Shown in pieces: positions 4,695 to 41,849 of a DNA stretch of 64,000 nucleotides. Source of the DNA: Gemmataceae bacterium (GTDB taxonomy: Bacteria; Planctomycetota; Planctomycetia; Gemmatales; Gemmataceae); assembly GCA_901538445.1 (NCBI GenBank), contig LR594584.1, positions 4,495,006 through 4,559,005 of the forward strand, given 5' to 3'. Made by a program: the position numbers and the translations under genes. Position 1 is the stretch's first letter; the number at the start of each line of letters is the position of its first letter. Under the pieces are notes generated by a model, which worked only from the letters and a program-made list of their open reading frames with translations, searched no databases and was not told where the DNA came from.

Positions 4695-6059
4695 TCACCG
4701 CGCGATGCGACAGTTCGGCAGCGCCTTCGCGAGTTCGGCGGCCCCGGCGTCGGTGATCTGCGTGCCGGTGATGTCGAGCGACGTCAGCGCCGCGAGCTTC
4801 GCCAGTTCCTTCGCGCCGGCGTCGGTCACGCCGGTGTTCCACAGGTTCAGCGTCGTCAGTCCCTTGAGTGCGGCCAGATCCTTGACGCCCGCGTCGGTCA
4901 CCTTGGTGCCGAACAGCGAGAGCGTCTTGAGCCCTTTGAGGCCGGCGAGCCCTTTGAGCCCGGGATCGGCAACCTTCGTGCCGCTCAGGTCGAGGTGGGC
5001 CAACCCCGGGAACGCCGCGAGCCCCTTCGCGCCGGCGTCGGTGACCTTCGTGCCGCCGAGGTTCAGCGTGGTCAACTCCTTCGACGCGCCGAGCGCCTTC
5101 AGCCCCGCGTCGCCGACGGCCGTGTTCGAGAGGTCGAGGGCCGCGAGCTTCTTGAACGCCGCGACCTCGCGCATCCCCGCGTCGGTGACCTTCGCCCCCT
5201 TGAGCTTCAGGCTCGTGAGGCCGGCGAGCGGGGCGAGGTTCCGGAGGCCGGCGTCGCCGACGGCGGTGTCGCTCAGGTCGAGCGCGGCCAGCGCCTTGAA
5301 CCGCGTCAGCCCCTTCATGCCGCCGTCGGTGACCTTCGTGAACCCGAGCCCGAGCGCCGAAGGGCTCGCGAGCGTCAGGTCCGCGAGGTGCGCGTCGGTC
5401 ACGGCGAGGTTCGTGACGTCGAGGTCCGCGAGGTTCGGGAACGCGGCGAGTTCCTTGAGCCCCGGGCCGGTCACCTGGGTGCCGTTGAGCGAGAGAGCGG
5501 TGAGGCTCTTGAGCGGGGCGAGCCGCTTCAGCCCCGCGTCGGTGACCGCCAAGTTCCCGACGTGGAGCGAGGCCAGCGCCGGGTACTTCGCGATGTCGGC
5601 CAGCCCGGCCTCGGTCACCTTGGTGTTCGACACGTCGAGGTGTGCGAGCCGCTTCAGCAGCGCGAGGTACTTGAGCGTGGCGTCGGTGACTTCGGTGTTC
5701 GCGACGGACAGCCGCGTGAGCCCGCGGAGCCGGGTGACCACCTTCAGTCCGTCGTCGGTGATCTCGGTGCGGCTCGCGTCGAGCGACGTGAGGTCCGCGA
5801 GGGGGGCCAGTTCGACGATCCCCGAGTTGGTGACGCGGGTCCGCGACACGTCGAGGTGCGTCAGCGTGGTGAGTGCGGCGACCGTGCGCAGGTCGGCGTC
5901 GGTGACGCGGGACTGGTCGAGGGACACGCGGGCGACGGCCCCCTTGTCGTCCCGCTCGACGCGGCCGCCGAGTTTCGCGACCAGCGTGAGGGCTGCGGCC
6001 TCGTCGGCGGCGGCCGCGGACGCACCGAGGAACACGAGGGAGAGGAGGGCGGGGCGCAT
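4695..6059 (-). CDS. Exported leucine-rich repeat protein
   Basis: This 454-residue protein has an N-terminal signal peptide (residues 1-18) and then consists almost entirely of about 17 leucine-rich repeats of roughly 24 residues, each with the pattern L-x-x-L-x-L-x-x-T-x-V-T-D-A-G-L-K-x-L-A. The VTDAG spacing is the GALA/RNI-like type (ribonuclease-inhibitor-like) common in planctomycetes. Such proteins bind other macromolecules; no catalytic residues are present. The last repeat ends with ALPNCRIAR, a common end for these proteins in the group. The repeats are also visible in the DNA as imperfect direct repeats of about 72 bases. Start: the ATG at 6059, followed immediately by the hydrophobic segment. 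Confidence 0.93.
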   Translation of the reverse strand: MRPALLSLVFLGASAAAADEAAALTLVAKLGGRVERDDKGAVARVSLDQSRVTDADLRTVAALTTLTHLDVSRTRVTNSGIVELAPLADLTSLDASRTEITDDGLKVVTRLRGLTRLSVANTEVTDATLKYLALLKRLAHLDVSNTKVTEAGLADIAKYPALASLHVGNLAVTDAGLKRLAPLKSLTALSLNGTQVTGPGLKELAAFPNLADLDVTNLAVTDAHLADLTLASPSALGLGFTKVTDGGMKGLTRFKALAALDLSDTAVGDAGLRNLAPLAGLTSLKLKGAKVTDAGMREVAAFKKLAALDLSNTAVGDAGLKALGASKELTTLNLGGTKVTDAGAKGLAAFPGLAHLDLSGTKVADPGLKGLAGLKGLKTLSLFGTKVTDAGVKDLAALKGLTTLNLWNTGVTDAGAKELAKLAALTSLDITGTQITDAGAAELAKALPNCRIAR

Positions 6060-6069
6060 CGTTAGCTCG

Positions 6070-6168
6070 GAAGTTACGAGTTTCAGGTTTCAGGTTTCGT
6101 GTGTCCAGTCTCGGACGGTCGCCCGGTCGGAACTTGAAACGTTAAACTCGAAACGTGAAACTCAAAAC
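6070..6168. repeat. Intergenic inverted repeat with 7-base periodic arms (TTTCAGG-like)
   Basis: The left arm (about 6070-6103) reads as successive 7-mers such as GAGTTTC, AGGTTTC, AGGTTTC. The right arm (about 6131-6168) is AACTTGA, AACGTTA, AACTCGA, AACGTGA, AACTCAA, the inverse of the left with substitutions. It is markedly AT-rich against the surrounding DNA. It sits just upstream of the LRR start, inside the divergent LRR/Cys-rich-protein gap (6060-6320), so it could influence either leader. The rest of this gap has no gene. Confidence 0.7.
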
Positions 6169-6320
6169 GGCGGGTGTCTGGGCAGCTTACGTCGCACGTG
6201 CGGGCGGAGCAACCGACGGGTCGTGCCGGTTCCGCCGGGATTTCGCGGTCGGGTGTTGGCCCCCGCGTGTTTGTAGCGTACAACGTGTGAGCAGAACCGG
6301 TTGCCTCCCCGACGCTACCC

Positions 6321-6962
6321 ATGTGGTTCCTGCGACGAGTCCCGAGCCCACCCAGGGGCCGCCACATCCTGGCGGTGCTGCTCCTCGTCGCGCACGTCTT
6401 CGCCGCCACCGGCGCACCGGTCCCCGTCCCGCACGCCGCTAACCCGCGCAAATCGCAGTCGCCGTACCCGTGCCGCGACCACGCCTGCGGGTGCCTCACG
6501 GCCGAGCAGTGCTGGGCCGGCGACTGCTGCTGCTTCACTCTGGAACAGAAGCTCGCCTGGGCAGACGGCCGCGGTGTCGACCCCCCGGCCTCGGCTCGCG
6601 CCGCGGCCGACGCGCGGAAGGCGACGCCCCCGAAGAAACCGAAGCGCCCGTGCTGCCGCGGCGAGGACGAGGCCGCGTTGCCCGTGGCCGCGTGCTCCGG
6701 CCCGACGTGCGACCGCGAGGCGGTCGCCGTTGAAGACGCCGCCGACGACACGCTCACGGTGCTGTGGGTCGCCGGCGTCCGCGCCCAAAAGTGCCGCGGG
6801 GAAGGCCCGGCCGGCCTGCTGAAGCTCGACCCGGCCGTTCCGCCCGCCGCCACTCCCGCCGCACCCCTCGCACCGGAACCCGACCGGTTCGCACGCCCCG
6901 CGTCGGTCCCGCCCGTACCCATTTCCCAACAGCCGCCGGCGCGCCCGCCGCGACTGGGCTGA
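6321..6962 (+). CDS. Cys-rich exported hypothetical protein (possible metal binding)
   Basis: This 213-residue protein has a hydrophobic segment (about residues 14-32) that looks like a signal peptide or anchor. It is followed by a compact Cys/His cluster: [16 protein letters not shown] and then [15 protein letters not shown]. Further cysteines occur in [16 protein letters not shown] and QKCRG, and a proline-rich tail closes the protein. I recall similar Cys-cluster proteins in planctomycete genomes near heavy-metal efflux genes, but no function is established. A metal-binding or redox role is an inference from the cysteines alone. It opens a same-strand run with the DUF1559, BNR and cytochrome-TlpA genes. 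Confidence 0.75.
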
Positions 6963-7096
6963 CACGTCTCGCGAACTCCCGAGCCACGCACCCGACGGGT
7001 GAGCGCACACGCGCCCCCGTACCGATTCCATCACACAGCTCGAGCCCGCGCCGGCGCGCCTCGCCGTGCGCCGCGGCTCGCTTCCGAGGTACACAC

Positions 7097-8197
7097 ATGA
7101 CCCGCCGCGCCTTTACACTCATCGAACTGTTGGTGGTGATCGCGATCATCGCCGTGCTGATCGGGCTCCTGCTCCCCGCGGTCCAGAAGGTCCGCGAGGC
7201 CGCCGCCCGCATGAAGTGCCAGAACAACCTGAAGCAGATCGCCCTCGGGTGCCACAACCACGAGAGCGCCAAAACGTACTTCCCCGGCCTCGGCGGCGAC
7301 GCCTCCGGCACCATCGGCCAGGCCAAGGCGTTCAGCCCGCTCGCGAGCGTGCTGCCGTACATCGAGCAGGCCGGGCTCCAGAGCCTCATCGACTTCTCGA
7401 AGGACGCGGTCCTCGGACCGCAGTTCTTCCGCGGGGTGCTGAACCCGCCCCACGACGCGGCCGCCGGCACGAAGGTGAACCTGTTCCTGTGCCCGAGCGA
7501 CGGCCAGAACCCGATCTTCGCGTTCACCGACTCGGCCGGCTACCGGGCCGCGGCGACCCCGCCGGGCGGCGCGGCGTTCACGATGGCCGGCACGAACTAC
7601 GTGTTCAACATGGGCACCGGCTCGGCCGGCAGTTCGTTCGCGTACTACGACAGCCAGTTCCCGACGGACGGCATGTTCTGGTACGGGGCGCGGGTCGGGT
7701 TCCGCGATCTGACCGACGGCTCGTCGAACACGATGATGGCGTCCGAGGCGCTGCTCGGGCCGGGCGGGTCGAACGTCACCAGTGCGACGCCGCCGGCGGG
7801 CGTGCCGCAGCGCCACTACGTCGGCCTGAACACGAGCACCTACACCCCCGGCGGGGCTCCGATCGGGGGTTGGGTCGTGGGTGGTAGCCTCCAGACGACC
7901 CGACCGGGCGACTGCGACTCGGGCTCGCGCAACTGGACCACGAACCGCGGGAGCACGTGGTTCTGGGGCGGCCGCGACTGGAACGTGGTGTTCAGCACGG
8001 CCCTCAAGCCGAACGATTCGCTGCCGGACTGCGGGGCGCACGGCCGCGGGTACTTCGCCGCGCGGAGCCAGCACACCGGCGGCGTGAACGTCGCGATGTG
8101 CGACGGGAGCGTGCGGTTCGTCAGCAACAGCGTCGAGACCCCGACGTGGCAGGGCGCGTCCACCCGCGGCGGCGGCGAAACGGCCAACAACTGGTAA
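7097..8197 (+). CDS. DUF1559 protein with type II pseudopilin N-terminus
   Basis: This 366-residue protein begins with a prepilin-type cleavage/methylation signal, [20 protein letters not shown], followed by the planctomycete DUF1559 hallmark [21 protein letters not shown]. The C-terminus holds the other family mark, a [15 protein letters not shown] segment ('H-x9-DG'-type end). DUF1559 is hugely expanded in planctomycetes and is believed to form pseudopilin-like surface or envelope structures; the exact role is unknown. The ATG at 7097 is chosen because it places the short basic leader right before the pseudopilin helix; the frame is open further upstream, but that part is not protein-like. 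A short hairpin (8206-8231) follows the gene. Confidence 0.95.
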
Positions 8198-38828: not shown

Positions 38829-39725
38829 CTACCGCTTCGGCCGCGTCGCGATCGCCTTGCGGATCACCTTCAGAATCTCCTCGCGCTCGGCCCCGACGAG
38901 CGGCAGCCGCGGGGCGCGGCACAGCTCGGTGCCGTACCCGCACTCGGCGCACGCCAGCTTGATGTACTGCACCAGCTTCACGTGCGTGTCAAGGTGCAGC
39001 AAGGGCGTGTACCACCGGTAGATTTCGAGCGCCTCCTGCCACTTCCCGGCCTTCGCCAGGTCCCAGATGAGGCGGTTCTCGCGGGGGAAGGCGTTGACCA
39101 GCCCCGAGATCCAGCCGACCGCCCCGAGCATCATGCACTCGAGGAACAGGTCGTCCACCCCGGCGAACAGCGGGTACCGGTCGCCGACGAGGTTGATGAT
39201 GTCGGTGATCCGCCGCGGGTTGTCGCTCGACTCCTTGATGCACGCGAACTTCGGCTCGTCGGCCATCTCCGCGAACATCTCGGGGGTGATGTCGACTTTG
39301 TACGCCGGCGGGTTGTTGTAAATCATGATCGGCAGGTCGGTCGCCTTCGCCACGGTGCGGAAGTGGGCGATCGTCTCGCGGGCGTCGGTCTTGTAGACCA
39401 TCGGCGGCAGGACCATGAGCCCGTCGGCCCCGATCTTGGCGGCGTCGGCGGCCCACCGGCACGCGCCCGCGGTGGTGTACTCGGCGACGCCGGTGAGCAC
39501 CGGCACCCGCTTGCGGACGTGCTCGACGGTCGCCTTGAACAGCTCCCGCTTCTCGCCGGCGTCGAGGGCCGTGTTCTCGCCGACGCTGCCGAGCATGACG
39601 AGCCCGTGGACCCCCGCGTCGAGCAGAACATCGACGTGCGCGAGGGTGCCGGGGACGTTGAGCGACTGGTCGGCGTTGAACTGCGTGCAGACGGCGGGGA
39701 ACACCCCGCCCCAGGTGACCTTCAT
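38829..39725 (-). CDS. Dihydrodipicolinate synthase / N-acetylneuraminate lyase family protein
   Basis: This 298-residue class I aldolase TIM barrel has GVFPAVCTQFNADQSLN at the start, GLVMLGSVGENTALDAGEKR (G-x-x-G-E signature), LPIMIYNNPPAY with the catalytic Tyr, and FACIKESSDNPRR whose Lys should form the Schiff base with the keto-acid substrate. Length and motifs fit the DHDPS/NAL family. With no lysine-biosynthesis genes beside it, it may be one of the catabolic members that cleave keto-deoxy sugar acids rather than DapA itself. Start: ATG 39725, which gives the usual short N-terminus. The frame is open further upstream without protein character. Confidence 0.9.
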   Translation of the reverse strand: MKVTWGGVFPAVCTQFNADQSLNVPGTLAHVDVLLDAGVHGLVMLGSVGENTALDAGEKRELFKATVEHVRKRVPVLTGVAEYTTAGACRWAADAAKIGADGLMVLPPMVYKTDARETIAHFRTVAKATDLPIMIYNNPPAYKVDITPEMFAEMADEPKFACIKESSDNPRRITDIINLVGDRYPLFAGVDDLFLECMMLGAVGWISGLVNAFPRENRLIWDLAKAGKWQEALEIYRWYTPLLHLDTHVKLVQYIKLACAECGYGTELCRAPRLPLVGAEREEILKVIRKAIATRPKR

Positions 39726-39878
39726 GTGTGCGTGCCTCGGGAGCGGACCAGCGGGTCGGGTCCAATCGGACCAGTTTACCCCCGCGTGCCCCCGAGTTCT
39801 TGACCGATCGCGTAGCGGAAACTCGAAACGCGGCACAACGAAAGGGAGGAGGTGCGGAGAGGTGTCGGTGTTGTGGTT

Positions 39879-40057: not shown

Positions 40058-41074
40058 TCACGGCCGGTCGCCGGGGCGGCCGAGGACCGCGTCGTTGGCG
40101 TCGGCCCCGGCGGCCACGCGGCCGAACACGTTGCGGTAGATGTCGTCGCCGTTCGGGCCGATCAGCGCCGAGGTCGCGTGGCGCACGTTCCCCCCGGCGT
40201 ACAGGACGTTCATGCCGACCGCGTGCGGGCACACGGGGCCGCCGGCCGGGGCGACGGCCGCCGCGGGGTAATCGGCCGAGATCGGGACGAGGTCGTGCTG
40301 GGGGTCGGTGCCGCGGGTCAGGCCGAGCAGGTCGCCGGTCGGGGCGCGGTACCCGAGGCTGTAGGCGTACCCGACGGCCGAACCGGGCCGGGCGGGGTCG
40401 GCCGGGCAGCACGCGCGGAACCCGGCCGGGACCTGGCCCGCGTCGACCAGCGCCGACACGAACGTGTCGGCCGTCGGGTTCGCGTCGGTCCCGACCCGCG
40501 GGTACCGCCCGGCGTGCGCCTCGGCGTACCCGGTGAGCCCGGTGTGGAGCGTGCGGAGGTTGTCCTGGCACGCGAGCACCTGGCTCTCGGCCCGGAGCCG
40601 GCCGACGCCGGTGGCGATGAGCCCGACCGCGAACACCGCGACCGAGCACGCGACGATCAGGTCGAACCGGAACCGGCCGCCGACGGCCCGCGGCTCGGGC
40701 GCGTCGCGGTGGGCCGCCCGGAGCGGCCGCGGGGCCGGGAACGCGAGCGGGTGCGGCTCGGGCTCGGGGTAGTCGGTCTCCATCGCCTTCGCCACGGCCA
40801 GCAGGGTCCCGTGGTCCGACTCGACCGACTGCGGGGGCTCGTGCCGGGTCAGGTGCTCGGCGAGCCGCGCGACGGTGCGGAGGGCGAGCAGCGGCGGCGG
40901 CTCGGCGGGCTCGCGGTCCAGTTCGAGCGGGGCCAGCGAGCGGCGGAGGTGGTCGAGCCGGGCCGCGGCCGCCGGGTCGGAGCGGAGGCGCAGTTCGACC
41001 GCGGCGCGCTCGTCGGGGGCGAGCGCGTCGAACAGGTAACCGATCAGGGTCTCGTCGGTCGCGGTGGTCGTCAT
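40058..41074 (-). CDS. Anti-sigma-like protein fused to a DUF1559/pseudopilin-like extracytoplasmic domain
   Basis: This 338-residue protein has a cytoplasmic N-terminus (1-50, ETLIGYLFDALAPDERAAVE) that reads like the anti-sigma helical domain of planctomycete regulators. Next come a Pro-rich linker, a transmembrane helix (137-157) and, right after it, RAESQVLACQDNLRTLHTGL, which has the look of the DUF1559 post-helix segment (C-x-N-N-L-K-x-x). The C-terminal part (AGGNVRHATSALIGPNGDDI) resembles the end of DUF1559-like proteins, which often have a display segment before a final 'G--V-'. It begins 11 bases after the ECF sigma gene in the same orientation, so it is the probable sensor/anti-sigma partner. 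The combination is unusual. Confidence 0.75.
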   Translation of the reverse strand: MTTTATDETLIGYLFDALAPDERAAVELRLRSDPAAAARLDHLRRSLAPLELDREPAEPPPLLALRTVARLAEHLTRHEPPQSVESDHGTLLAVAKAMETDYPEPEPHPLAFPAPRPLRAAHRDAPEPRAVGGRFRFDLIVACSVAVFAVGLIATGVGRLRAESQVLACQDNLRTLHTGLTGYAEAHAGRYPRVGTDANPTADTFVSALVDAGQVPAGFRACCPADPARPGSAVGYAYSLGYRAPTGDLLGLTRGTDPQHDLVPISADYPAAAVAPAGGPVCPHAVGMNVLYAGGNVRHATSALIGPNGDDIYRNVFGRVAAGADANDAVLGRPGDRP

Positions 41075-41085
41075 GGGTCGCCTCG

Positions 41086-41718
41086 TCACTCCGCACTGTG
41101 CGTCGCGCACCCGGCGCTCTCGCCGGCCCAGTCCTCGGTCAACTTGGTCAGCGCCGCGTGGAGCCGGGACTTCACCGTGCCGACCGGGATGTCGAGCGCC
41201 GCCGCCGCGTCCTGGTACTTGAGCCCCTGGAAGTACACCAACAGGACCGTCTGCCGCAAGAGGTCCGGGAGCCGGTCCACGGCGGCACGGACCAGTTCCC
41301 GCTGCTCGGCGCGGTCGGCGGCGTCCGGGGGGGCGTCGCCGGGGGCCGGGAGCAGCTCGAACAGCGGCCGCGGCTCGCCGTCCTCGTCCGGGGCCGAGAC
41401 CGTGTCGGCCGGGCGGTCCGCGAGCCGCCGGTTCCGCCGCCGCAGCGCGTCGATCGCCTGGTTGGTGGCGATCGCGTACAGCCACGGGCGGGCCGGGCGG
41501 CCGGGCTCGTACTGCTGGATCTTCAGGAACACCTGCACGAACGTGTTCTGGAACACGTCGTCGGCGAGGTCGTCGTCCCCGACGTACCGCCGCAGGTAGC
41601 CGAACAGCTCCCGCTCGTACCGGCGGACGAGCGGGCCGAACACGTCCCGTTCGCCGTCGCGCAGCCGCGCGAGGAGGTGTTCGTCGGTCTCCGGGTCTGG
41701 CGGGGGAAGGTCCAGCAC
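41086..41718 (-). CDS. ECF-type RNA polymerase sigma factor
   Basis: This 210-residue sigma-70-family ECF factor has region 2 as RRYERELFGYLRRYVGDDDL, then DDVFQNTFVQVFLKIQQYEP and RPWLYAIATNQAIDALRRR. Region 4 is LPDLLRQTVLLVYFQGLKYQ followed by the helix-turn-helix AAALDIPVGTVKSRLHAALT. The short C-terminal tail contains a Cys (GCATHSAE). It is expected to be released by its membrane partner encoded directly downstream. A central linker rich in acid and Pro (residues 100-130) separates the two domains. Start: ATG 41718. It is a different ECF subgroup from the factor at 14484. Confidence 0.95.
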   Translation of the reverse strand: MLDLPPPDPETDEHLLARLRDGERDVFGPLVRRYERELFGYLRRYVGDDDLADDVFQNTFVQVFLKIQQYEPGRPARPWLYAIATNQAIDALRRRNRRLADRPADTVSAPDEDGEPRPLFELLPAPGDAPPDAADRAEQRELVRAAVDRLPDLLRQTVLLVYFQGLKYQDAAAALDIPVGTVKSRLHAALTKLTEDWAGESAGCATHSAE

Positions 41719-41849
41719 GGCCCCTCACAGCTTCTACGCCGCGGCGCAACGGAACGTTCGCGCGGCGGGTTGCATTTCAGGTTACCACACGGGTGGCGAA
41801 TCGGCGCGGGGCGCGGTAGCCTGCACCCGTTCCCCCACCCGGAGCCGAC

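What the first reader, a model, noticed from the sequence alone, without database searches (positions are those of the whole stretch)
40058..41718. ECF sigma factor paired with an anti-sigma/pseudopilin (DUF1559-like) hybrid
The gene 11 bases downstream of the sigma gene encodes an anti-sigma-like N-terminus, a transmembrane helix and then the DUF1559-type segment QVLACQDNLRTLHTGL with a DUF1559-like C-terminus. DUF1559 proteins normally carry a prepilin leader; here the leader is replaced by a cytoplasmic regulator. This would make the DUF1559 domain a sensor or a reporter of envelope-assembly state, which would be a new role for the most abundant planctomycete domain family.
Basis: partly seen in the sequence, partly recalled or inferred. 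Interest (0 to 1): 0.7.

Follow-up and report, generated by a model that had tools for sequence, protein, structure and literature searches.

The report
Anti-sigma factor with pilin-like sensor
In planctomycete bacteria a gene switch (an ECF sigma factor) is paired with a membrane protein whose inner end should hold the switch off and whose outer end is a pilus-subunit-like domain that seems never to be processed, suggesting that a pilin has been turned into a sensor across the cell membrane.

Summary
Window 41086-41718(-) is an ECF sigma factor; 11 bp downstream, 40058-41074(-) encodes a 338-aa protein with a four-helix class I anti-sigma domain (residues 7-78), a linker, one transmembrane helix, and a type IV pilin-like domain (134-338). 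I collected 103 full-length homologues; 102 have the sigma gene immediately upstream on the same strand. Nine more distant planctomycete hybrids also have one. All hybrids fall on one side of a supported branch of the pilin-domain tree. The pilin-like half is not DUF1559 proper: it matches DUF1559 over the N-terminal helix and a short C-terminal motif, but matches leader-bearing H-X9-DG, GspG-like pseudopilins over the whole domain (hhalign E 9e-33). The prepilin cleavage motif is degenerate, while an acidic residue is kept at the Glu5 position. GAAC-N17-CGTA lies just upstream of the sigma gene in 64 of 82 homologous regions (N16 in nearly all others; shuffles 0-1), indicating autoregulation. 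Most likely it is an autoregulated sigma/anti-sigma switch whose sensor is an unprocessed pilin-like domain. The signal is unknown; sensing of pilin subunits or their assembly machinery is plausible but untested. I found no description of this architecture in the open papers searched.

The parts
41735..41759 (-). predicted autoregulatory ECF promoter GAAC-N17-CGTA, ending 16 nt before the sigma start codon
   Evidence: Best of all 4-mer/gap/4-mer patterns upstream of homologous sigma genes: 64 of 82, shuffles 0-1 of 82; nearly all others have N16. Only match in the window; a single window match is itself within chance, the cross-species conservation is the evidence.
41086..41718 (-). ECF sigma factor, 210 aa, GTG start (stop codon included)
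   Evidence: Pfam Sigma70_r2 and Sigma70_r4_2, TIGR02937
40058..41074 (-). hybrid anti-sigma / pilin-like membrane protein, 338 aa (stop codon included)
40841..41056 (-). class I anti-sigma domain, residues 7-78 (helices 7-14, 20-32, 34-51, 63-78), no zinc motif
   Evidence: AlphaFold model; RsiW 5wuq Z 6.0 and RskA 4nqw Z 4.9; NF052375
40676..40840 (-). low-confidence linker, residues 79-133 (a short helix 88-100 predicted)
40517..40675 (-). pilin-like alpha-1 helix, residues 134-186; transmembrane part about 139-157; Asp138 at the pilin Glu5 position, Arg161 at Arg28, Cys169 at Cys36 (the position of Pro22 is Thr155 here)
40061..40516 (-). pilin-like globular head, residues 187-338, predicted extracytoplasmic; Cys223 kept in nearly all homologues
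40190..40225 (-). H-X9-(D/G)G motif HAVGMNVLYAGG (residues 284-295); homologues have H-X9-DG
   Evidence: TIGR04294 hits in 24 of 56 homologues; position 294 is D in 46 and G in 35 of 83

Best explanation
A two-gene ECF signalling switch. The cytoplasmic anti-sigma domain of the hybrid holds the ECF sigma factor at the inner membrane. One pilin-type helix crosses the membrane and presents a pilin-like domain outside the cytoplasm. That domain started as a pseudopilin but is no longer a good prepilin peptidase substrate, so it stays a single-pass sensor. A signal on the pilin-like domain (most plausibly binding or loss of pilin-family subunits or of their assembly machinery in the membrane, or else an envelope ligand) frees the sigma factor, probably through regulated proteolysis of the hybrid as in RsiV/RseA-type systems. 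Free sigma transcribes its own operon from GAAC-N17-CGTA. Shown by sequence: architecture, pairing, pilin homology, degenerate cleavage site, acidic residue at position 5, conserved promoter-like element. Inferred: binding to sigma, topology, proteolytic release. Guess: the signal (pilin-related about 0.35).
For: Anti-sigma model hits in 56 of 56 homologues and predicted helices 7-14, 20-32, 34-51, then 63-78 after a linker, as in the class I anti-sigma definition (PMC7406223). RsiW Z 6.0 over 70 residues, RskA Z 4.9. Sigma immediately upstream, same strand, in 102 of 103 homologues, often overlapping or within 5 bp. Pilin-like half: hhalign to H-X9-DG pseudopilins E 9e-33 over 204 columns, heads alone E 1.4e-20; controls (shuffled, reversed, sigma) probability 1% or less. 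All rows of the C-domain structural comparison are pilins (PilV, TcpA, CofA, FimA; Z 3.3-4.6); the best PDB sequence hits of the profile include pilins, GspG and an anti-sigma factor (E 0.016-0.2). Degenerate cleavage site: Gly/Ala at -1 followed by a hydrophobic +1 in 4 of 83; no TIGR02532 match among the families listed for 56 members. Asp/Glu at position 5 in 77 of 83. Promoter element 64 of 82 against 0-1 in shuffles. The genome has a prepilin peptidase and M50 (site-2 type) proteases. Hybrids form one side of a branch, SH-aLRT 95.
Against: Nothing here shows sigma binding, topology or the signal. The window protein scores below the anti-sigma model's curated cut-off. Structural Z scores are moderate and Foldseek E-values are not significant. 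No pilin or secretion gene is a conserved neighbour. A promoter scan found no convincing second target in the own genome. Twelve of 83 homologues keep a loose [GAS]-hydrophobic-xxx-[DE] site, and the window protein has Gly133 at -1 (but Arg at +1), so processing is not excluded.
Confidence: 0.75

Rival explanations
1. Same switch, but the pilin-like domain is only a convenient extracytoplasmic receptor that binds an unrelated envelope or environmental ligand, or is the target of a site-1 protease under envelope stress; pilins are not involved.
For: Membrane anti-sigma factors with varied fused domains are common (PMC7406223); RsiV is a receptor for lysozyme (PMC4183432 abstract). No pilin or secretion gene is linked to the pair. 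Asp/Asn/Ser at the helix start may be a plain N-cap.
Against: An acid is kept at exactly the Glu5 position in 77 of 83 and the helix is kept in pilin register, more than a bare membrane anchor needs.
Confidence: 0.42
2. The prepilin peptidase itself cleaves the hybrid at the cytoplasmic face of the membrane and so frees the anti-sigma domain; activity of the pilin-processing machinery is the signal.
For: Topology and site position are right; L122 and L151 (G|W-N/S-L-V-D) and L182 and L183 (S|F-T-M-M-D) keep near-canonical sites; the window protein has Gly133 at -1; the genome has one prepilin peptidase match.
Against: Only 4 of 83 have Gly/Ala at -1 with a hydrophobic +1; the residues before the acid are mostly Arg, Trp and Phe; the leader normally ends in Gly or Ala (PMC10191384).
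Confidence: 0.08
3. The hybrid is a pilin-like structural protein and the N-terminal resemblance to anti-sigma factors is not functional.
For: The window protein is below the curated anti-sigma cut-off; no binding data.
Against: All 56 homologues hit the anti-sigma model, the sigma gene is adjacent in 102 of 103, the predicted helix pattern is that of class I domains.
Confidence: 0.04
4. Artefact: two genes joined by a sequencing error or wrong start.
For: None found.
Against: Same architecture in about 100 homologues from many independent assemblies.
Confidence: 0.01

Closest known systems
Class I membrane anti-sigma factors (RsiW, RskA, RseA, RsiV) with ECF sigma partners
   Same: N-terminal four-helix anti-sigma domain, one membrane helix, extracytoplasmic sensor domain, gene next to the sigma gene, probable autoregulated promoter
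   Different: The sensor domain is a type IV pilin-like domain and its membrane helix is the pilin alpha-1 helix; I found no such sensor described in the papers held here
H-X9-DG / GspG-like pseudopilins (TIGR04294, TIGR01710)
   Same: Alpha-1 helix with acid at 5, (usually) Pro22, Arg28, Cys36; second Cys; C-terminal NH-x-x-(K/G)GQNVL-x-DGHV motif; whole-domain profile match
   Different: No good cleavable leader; an anti-sigma domain of about 80 residues plus linker sits where the leader should be
DUF1559 / SBP_bac_10 (PF07596)
   Same: Alpha-1 helix and the C-terminal H-X9-DG motif; many hybrids give weak profile hits
   Different: DUF1559 is a separate, strongly supported branch with its own central region (ITDGTSNT in the own-genome consensus) and a canonical leader
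PilS/PilR pilin-inventory sensing
   Same: Works-like precedent only: a membrane regulator that senses pilin subunits in the inner membrane (PMC8088505)
   Different: PilS is a histidine kinase, not a pilin homologue and not an anti-sigma factor

Membership tests
ECF sigma factor | sigma regions 2 and 4 only | tested here: met
   Sigma70_r2 and Sigma70_r4_2 above Pfam cut-offs, 210 aa
Class I anti-sigma factor | three-helix bundle, linker and fourth helix at the N-terminus | tested here: met
   Predicted helices 7-14, 20-32, 34-51, 63-78; RsiW/RskA matches; definition from PMC7406223
Class I anti-sigma factor | encoded next to the cognate ECF sigma gene | tested here: met
   102 of 103
Class I anti-sigma factor | zinc motif Hx3Cx2C (optional subtype, not required for membership) | tested here: not met
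   Absent in the window protein; so the non-zinc subtype; a distant homologue L357 has HLESCTEC
Class I anti-sigma factor | binds and inhibits the sigma factor | not testable with these tools
   needs an experiment
Type IV pilin / pseudopilin | pilin fold: long N-terminal helix plus alpha/beta head | tested here: met
   53-residue helix 134-186; C-domain pLDDT 88; structural rows all pilins, moderate Z
Type IV pilin / pseudopilin | class III signal (leader ending in Gly/Ala, then a hydrophobic stretch) | tested here: not met
   4 of 83 have Gly/Ala at -1 with hydrophobic +1; window has G|RFRFD; TIGR02532 not among families hit
Type IV pilin / pseudopilin | Glu at position 5 | tested here: inconclusive
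   Acid kept at the position: Asp 73, Glu 4 of 83, but mostly Asp and also Asn/Ser, which would fit a helix cap too
DUF1559 (SBP_bac_10) | match to PF07596 above cut-off | tested here: not met
   No hit for the window protein at E<=10; 41 of 56 homologues hit at E<=1, best 8.2e-8
DUF1559 (SBP_bac_10) | whole-domain similarity to DUF1559 proteins | tested here: not met
   68 helix columns, and 23 columns of the head, only; separate branch in the tree

The most novel reading that the evidence does not exclude
The hybrid is a permanently unprocessed pilin subunit that takes inventory of mature pseudopilins or their assembly platform inside the inner membrane, through its retained position-5 acid and pilin-type helix, and turns that into sigma-factor release: a transcriptional sensor of filament or secretion-machine assembly, conserved across much of Planctomycetota.
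Probability: 0.28. Interest if true: 0.82.

Novelty: new variant of a known kind. Interest (0 to 1): 0.64.

Why it matters
Planctomycetes carry very large families of prepilin-like proteins of unknown function (123 SBP_bac_10 matches in this genome; 68 paralogues in P. limnophila, two of them essential, PMC10632474). A conserved sigma/anti-sigma switch built from a pilin relative gives a direct genetic handle on what such domains sense: delete the hybrid, read the regulon. It also gives a precise case of a secretion-filament subunit turned into a signalling receptor, and a likely promoter sequence with which the pathway can be assayed at once.

Tried and rejected
Regulon from the promoter element: 87 GAAC-N17-CGTA sites in the own genome (27 for the reversed pattern). 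Of those just before an ORF and outside apparent coding sequence, the pseudopilin gene in L309 looked attractive, but the site overlaps what looks like a terminator hairpin (CCTGACG...CGTCAGG) and one of 123 such genes is near chance. The longer pattern CGCGAACG-N16-CGTA gives only two sites in the own genome: the sigma gene and one that, judged from its conserved sequence in relatives, is coding. Redox sensing by the conserved Cys pair: rejected as special, because leader-bearing pilins keep the same Cys pair. Conserved neighbours: only the sigma gene is general; an FHA-domain gene downstream is limited to a few relatives. Foldseek alone found no significant PDB match; only the VIA second look and profile searches showed the pilins. 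Key ECF classification and planctomycete comparative papers were not held, so earlier mention of this fusion there cannot be excluded.

Full report
What is there. On the minus strand, 41718 to 41086 is an ECF sigma factor of 210 aa (regions 2 and 4). Eleven bases later, 41074 to 40058 encodes 338 aa. The first 80 residues match NCBIfam anti-sigma models (E 4.4e-9, residues 10-82). The strongest hydrophobic stretch is 139-157.

Is it a real, conserved protein? A search of 59 relatives found homologues in 43; the genus and family members match over both halves. A profile search of 392 planctomycete genomes and of a collection of bacterial and archaeal genomes extended this. Of 103 full-length hybrids (83 after removing those over 95% identical), 102 have a homologue of the window's sigma gene immediately upstream on the same strand; the gap is often 5 bp or less, or the genes overlap. 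The exception is L187. Nine more distant hybrids (L166, L351-L355, L357, L359, L360) have the same architecture and a sigma gene next to them. One family of the same class (f4) shows only pilin-helix hits in the sampled genomes.

The anti-sigma half. All 56 aligned homologues hit the anti-sigma model at E<=1. AlphaFold2 (pLDDT 83) predicts helices 7-14, 20-32, 34-51 and, after a linker, 63-78. This is the pattern that defines class I anti-sigma domains, three helices for sigma region 4 and a fourth for region 2 (PMC7406223). The best structural neighbours of this half are RsiW (Z 6.0, 70 residues, rmsd 5.4) and RskA (Z 4.9). There is no zinc motif.

The pilin-like half. Residues 134-186 form one long helix. 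In the C-domain model (pLDDT 88) every row of the structural comparison is a pilin: PilV, TcpA, CofA, FimA, Z 3.3-4.6. These Z values are moderate and Foldseek E-values are not significant, so the case rests mainly on sequence profiles. Against 18 leader-bearing H-X9-DG pseudopilins that themselves hit GspG, hhalign gives E 9e-33 over 204 columns, and E 1.4e-20 for the heads alone. Shuffled or reversed profiles, and the sigma alignment as a control, give a probability of 1% or less. Against the genome's own DUF1559 proteins the match is the helix (68 columns, 98.5%) and 23 columns of the head. In an ML tree all 54 hybrids lie on one side of a branch with support 95, DUF1559 is a separate group with support 100, and the H-X9-DG pilins lie with DUF1559 (unrooted, quick method).

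The cleavage site. Counted without gaps from the invariant Cys (pilin position 36), Pro22, Arg28 and position 5 fall in pilin register. Position 5 is Asp in 73, Glu in 4, Asn in 5 and Ser in 1 of 83; Gly/Ala at -1 followed by a hydrophobic residue occurs in 4 of 83. Profile-profile alignments and the PDB profile search also put this Asp opposite Glu5. Glu5 is needed for pilus and pseudopilus assembly (PMC5059446), and the pilin leader normally ends in Gly or Ala (PMC10191384). So the protein has mostly lost the processing signal but kept the assembly acid. A plain helix cap is the sober rival reading. The window protein reads G133|R134-F-R-F-D138, with Gly at -1 but Arg at +1 and +3.

The promoter. 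An exhaustive count of 4-mer/gap/4-mer patterns upstream of 82 homologous sigma genes gives GAAC-N17-CGTA first, in 64, against 0-1 in shuffles; nearly all the others carry GAAC-N16-CGTA. In the window it is 41735-41759, 16 nt before the sigma start. This is the form of an autoregulated ECF promoter. A search for further targets was not conclusive.

How it probably works. The hybrid tethers the sigma factor at the membrane; a signal on the pilin-like domain leads to release, by proteolysis or conformational change; free sigma transcribes its own operon. M50 proteases and a prepilin peptidase are present in the genome. What the domain senses is not shown. Sensing of pilin subunits has a precedent in PilS (PMC8088505), but the pair has no conserved pilin neighbour, so I give that reading about 0.3.

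Novelty. The kind (ECF sigma with class I membrane anti-sigma) is known; the sensor is new to me, and no paper found here joins pilins and anti-sigma factors in one protein. Several key papers were not held, so earlier mention cannot be ruled out.

Noticed in passing
L038, L136, L139, L124: Hybrids with what look like two tandem anti-sigma-type domains before the pilin-like helix.
   Followed up: partly
L170:3729-5744 and 5901-7901: Two tandem ORFs of about 650 aa in a Sedimentisphaerales contig with leaderless pilin-like N-termini and no sigma gene found nearby; perhaps another re-use of pilin domains.
   Followed up: partly
L122, L151, L182, L183: Hybrids that keep near-canonical prepilin sites (G|W-N/S-L-V-D, S|F-T-M-M-D); good test cases for cleavage by prepilin peptidase.
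   Followed up: no
L357:1150-2262: Distant hybrid with a zinc-type anti-sigma motif (HLESCTEC) fused to a pilin-like domain, without the position-5 acid.
   Followed up: no
L100, L101, L103, L104, L105, L107, L110, about 1-2 kb downstream of the pair: An FHA-domain gene follows the pair in several Gemmata relatives; in the window a DHDPS-family gene (38829-39836) lies there instead.
   Followed up: no
own genome, 123 SBP_bac_10 matches: Very large DUF1559 family with a single prepilin peptidase (PF06750) match in the genome.
   Followed up: no
upstream of sigma genes in Gemmata relatives (L013, L015, L016, L017, L018, L025, L026): A second conserved block, TGTGGTACACT/TATGATACACT-like, further upstream of the GAAC element; could be a housekeeping promoter or regulator site.
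   Followed up: no
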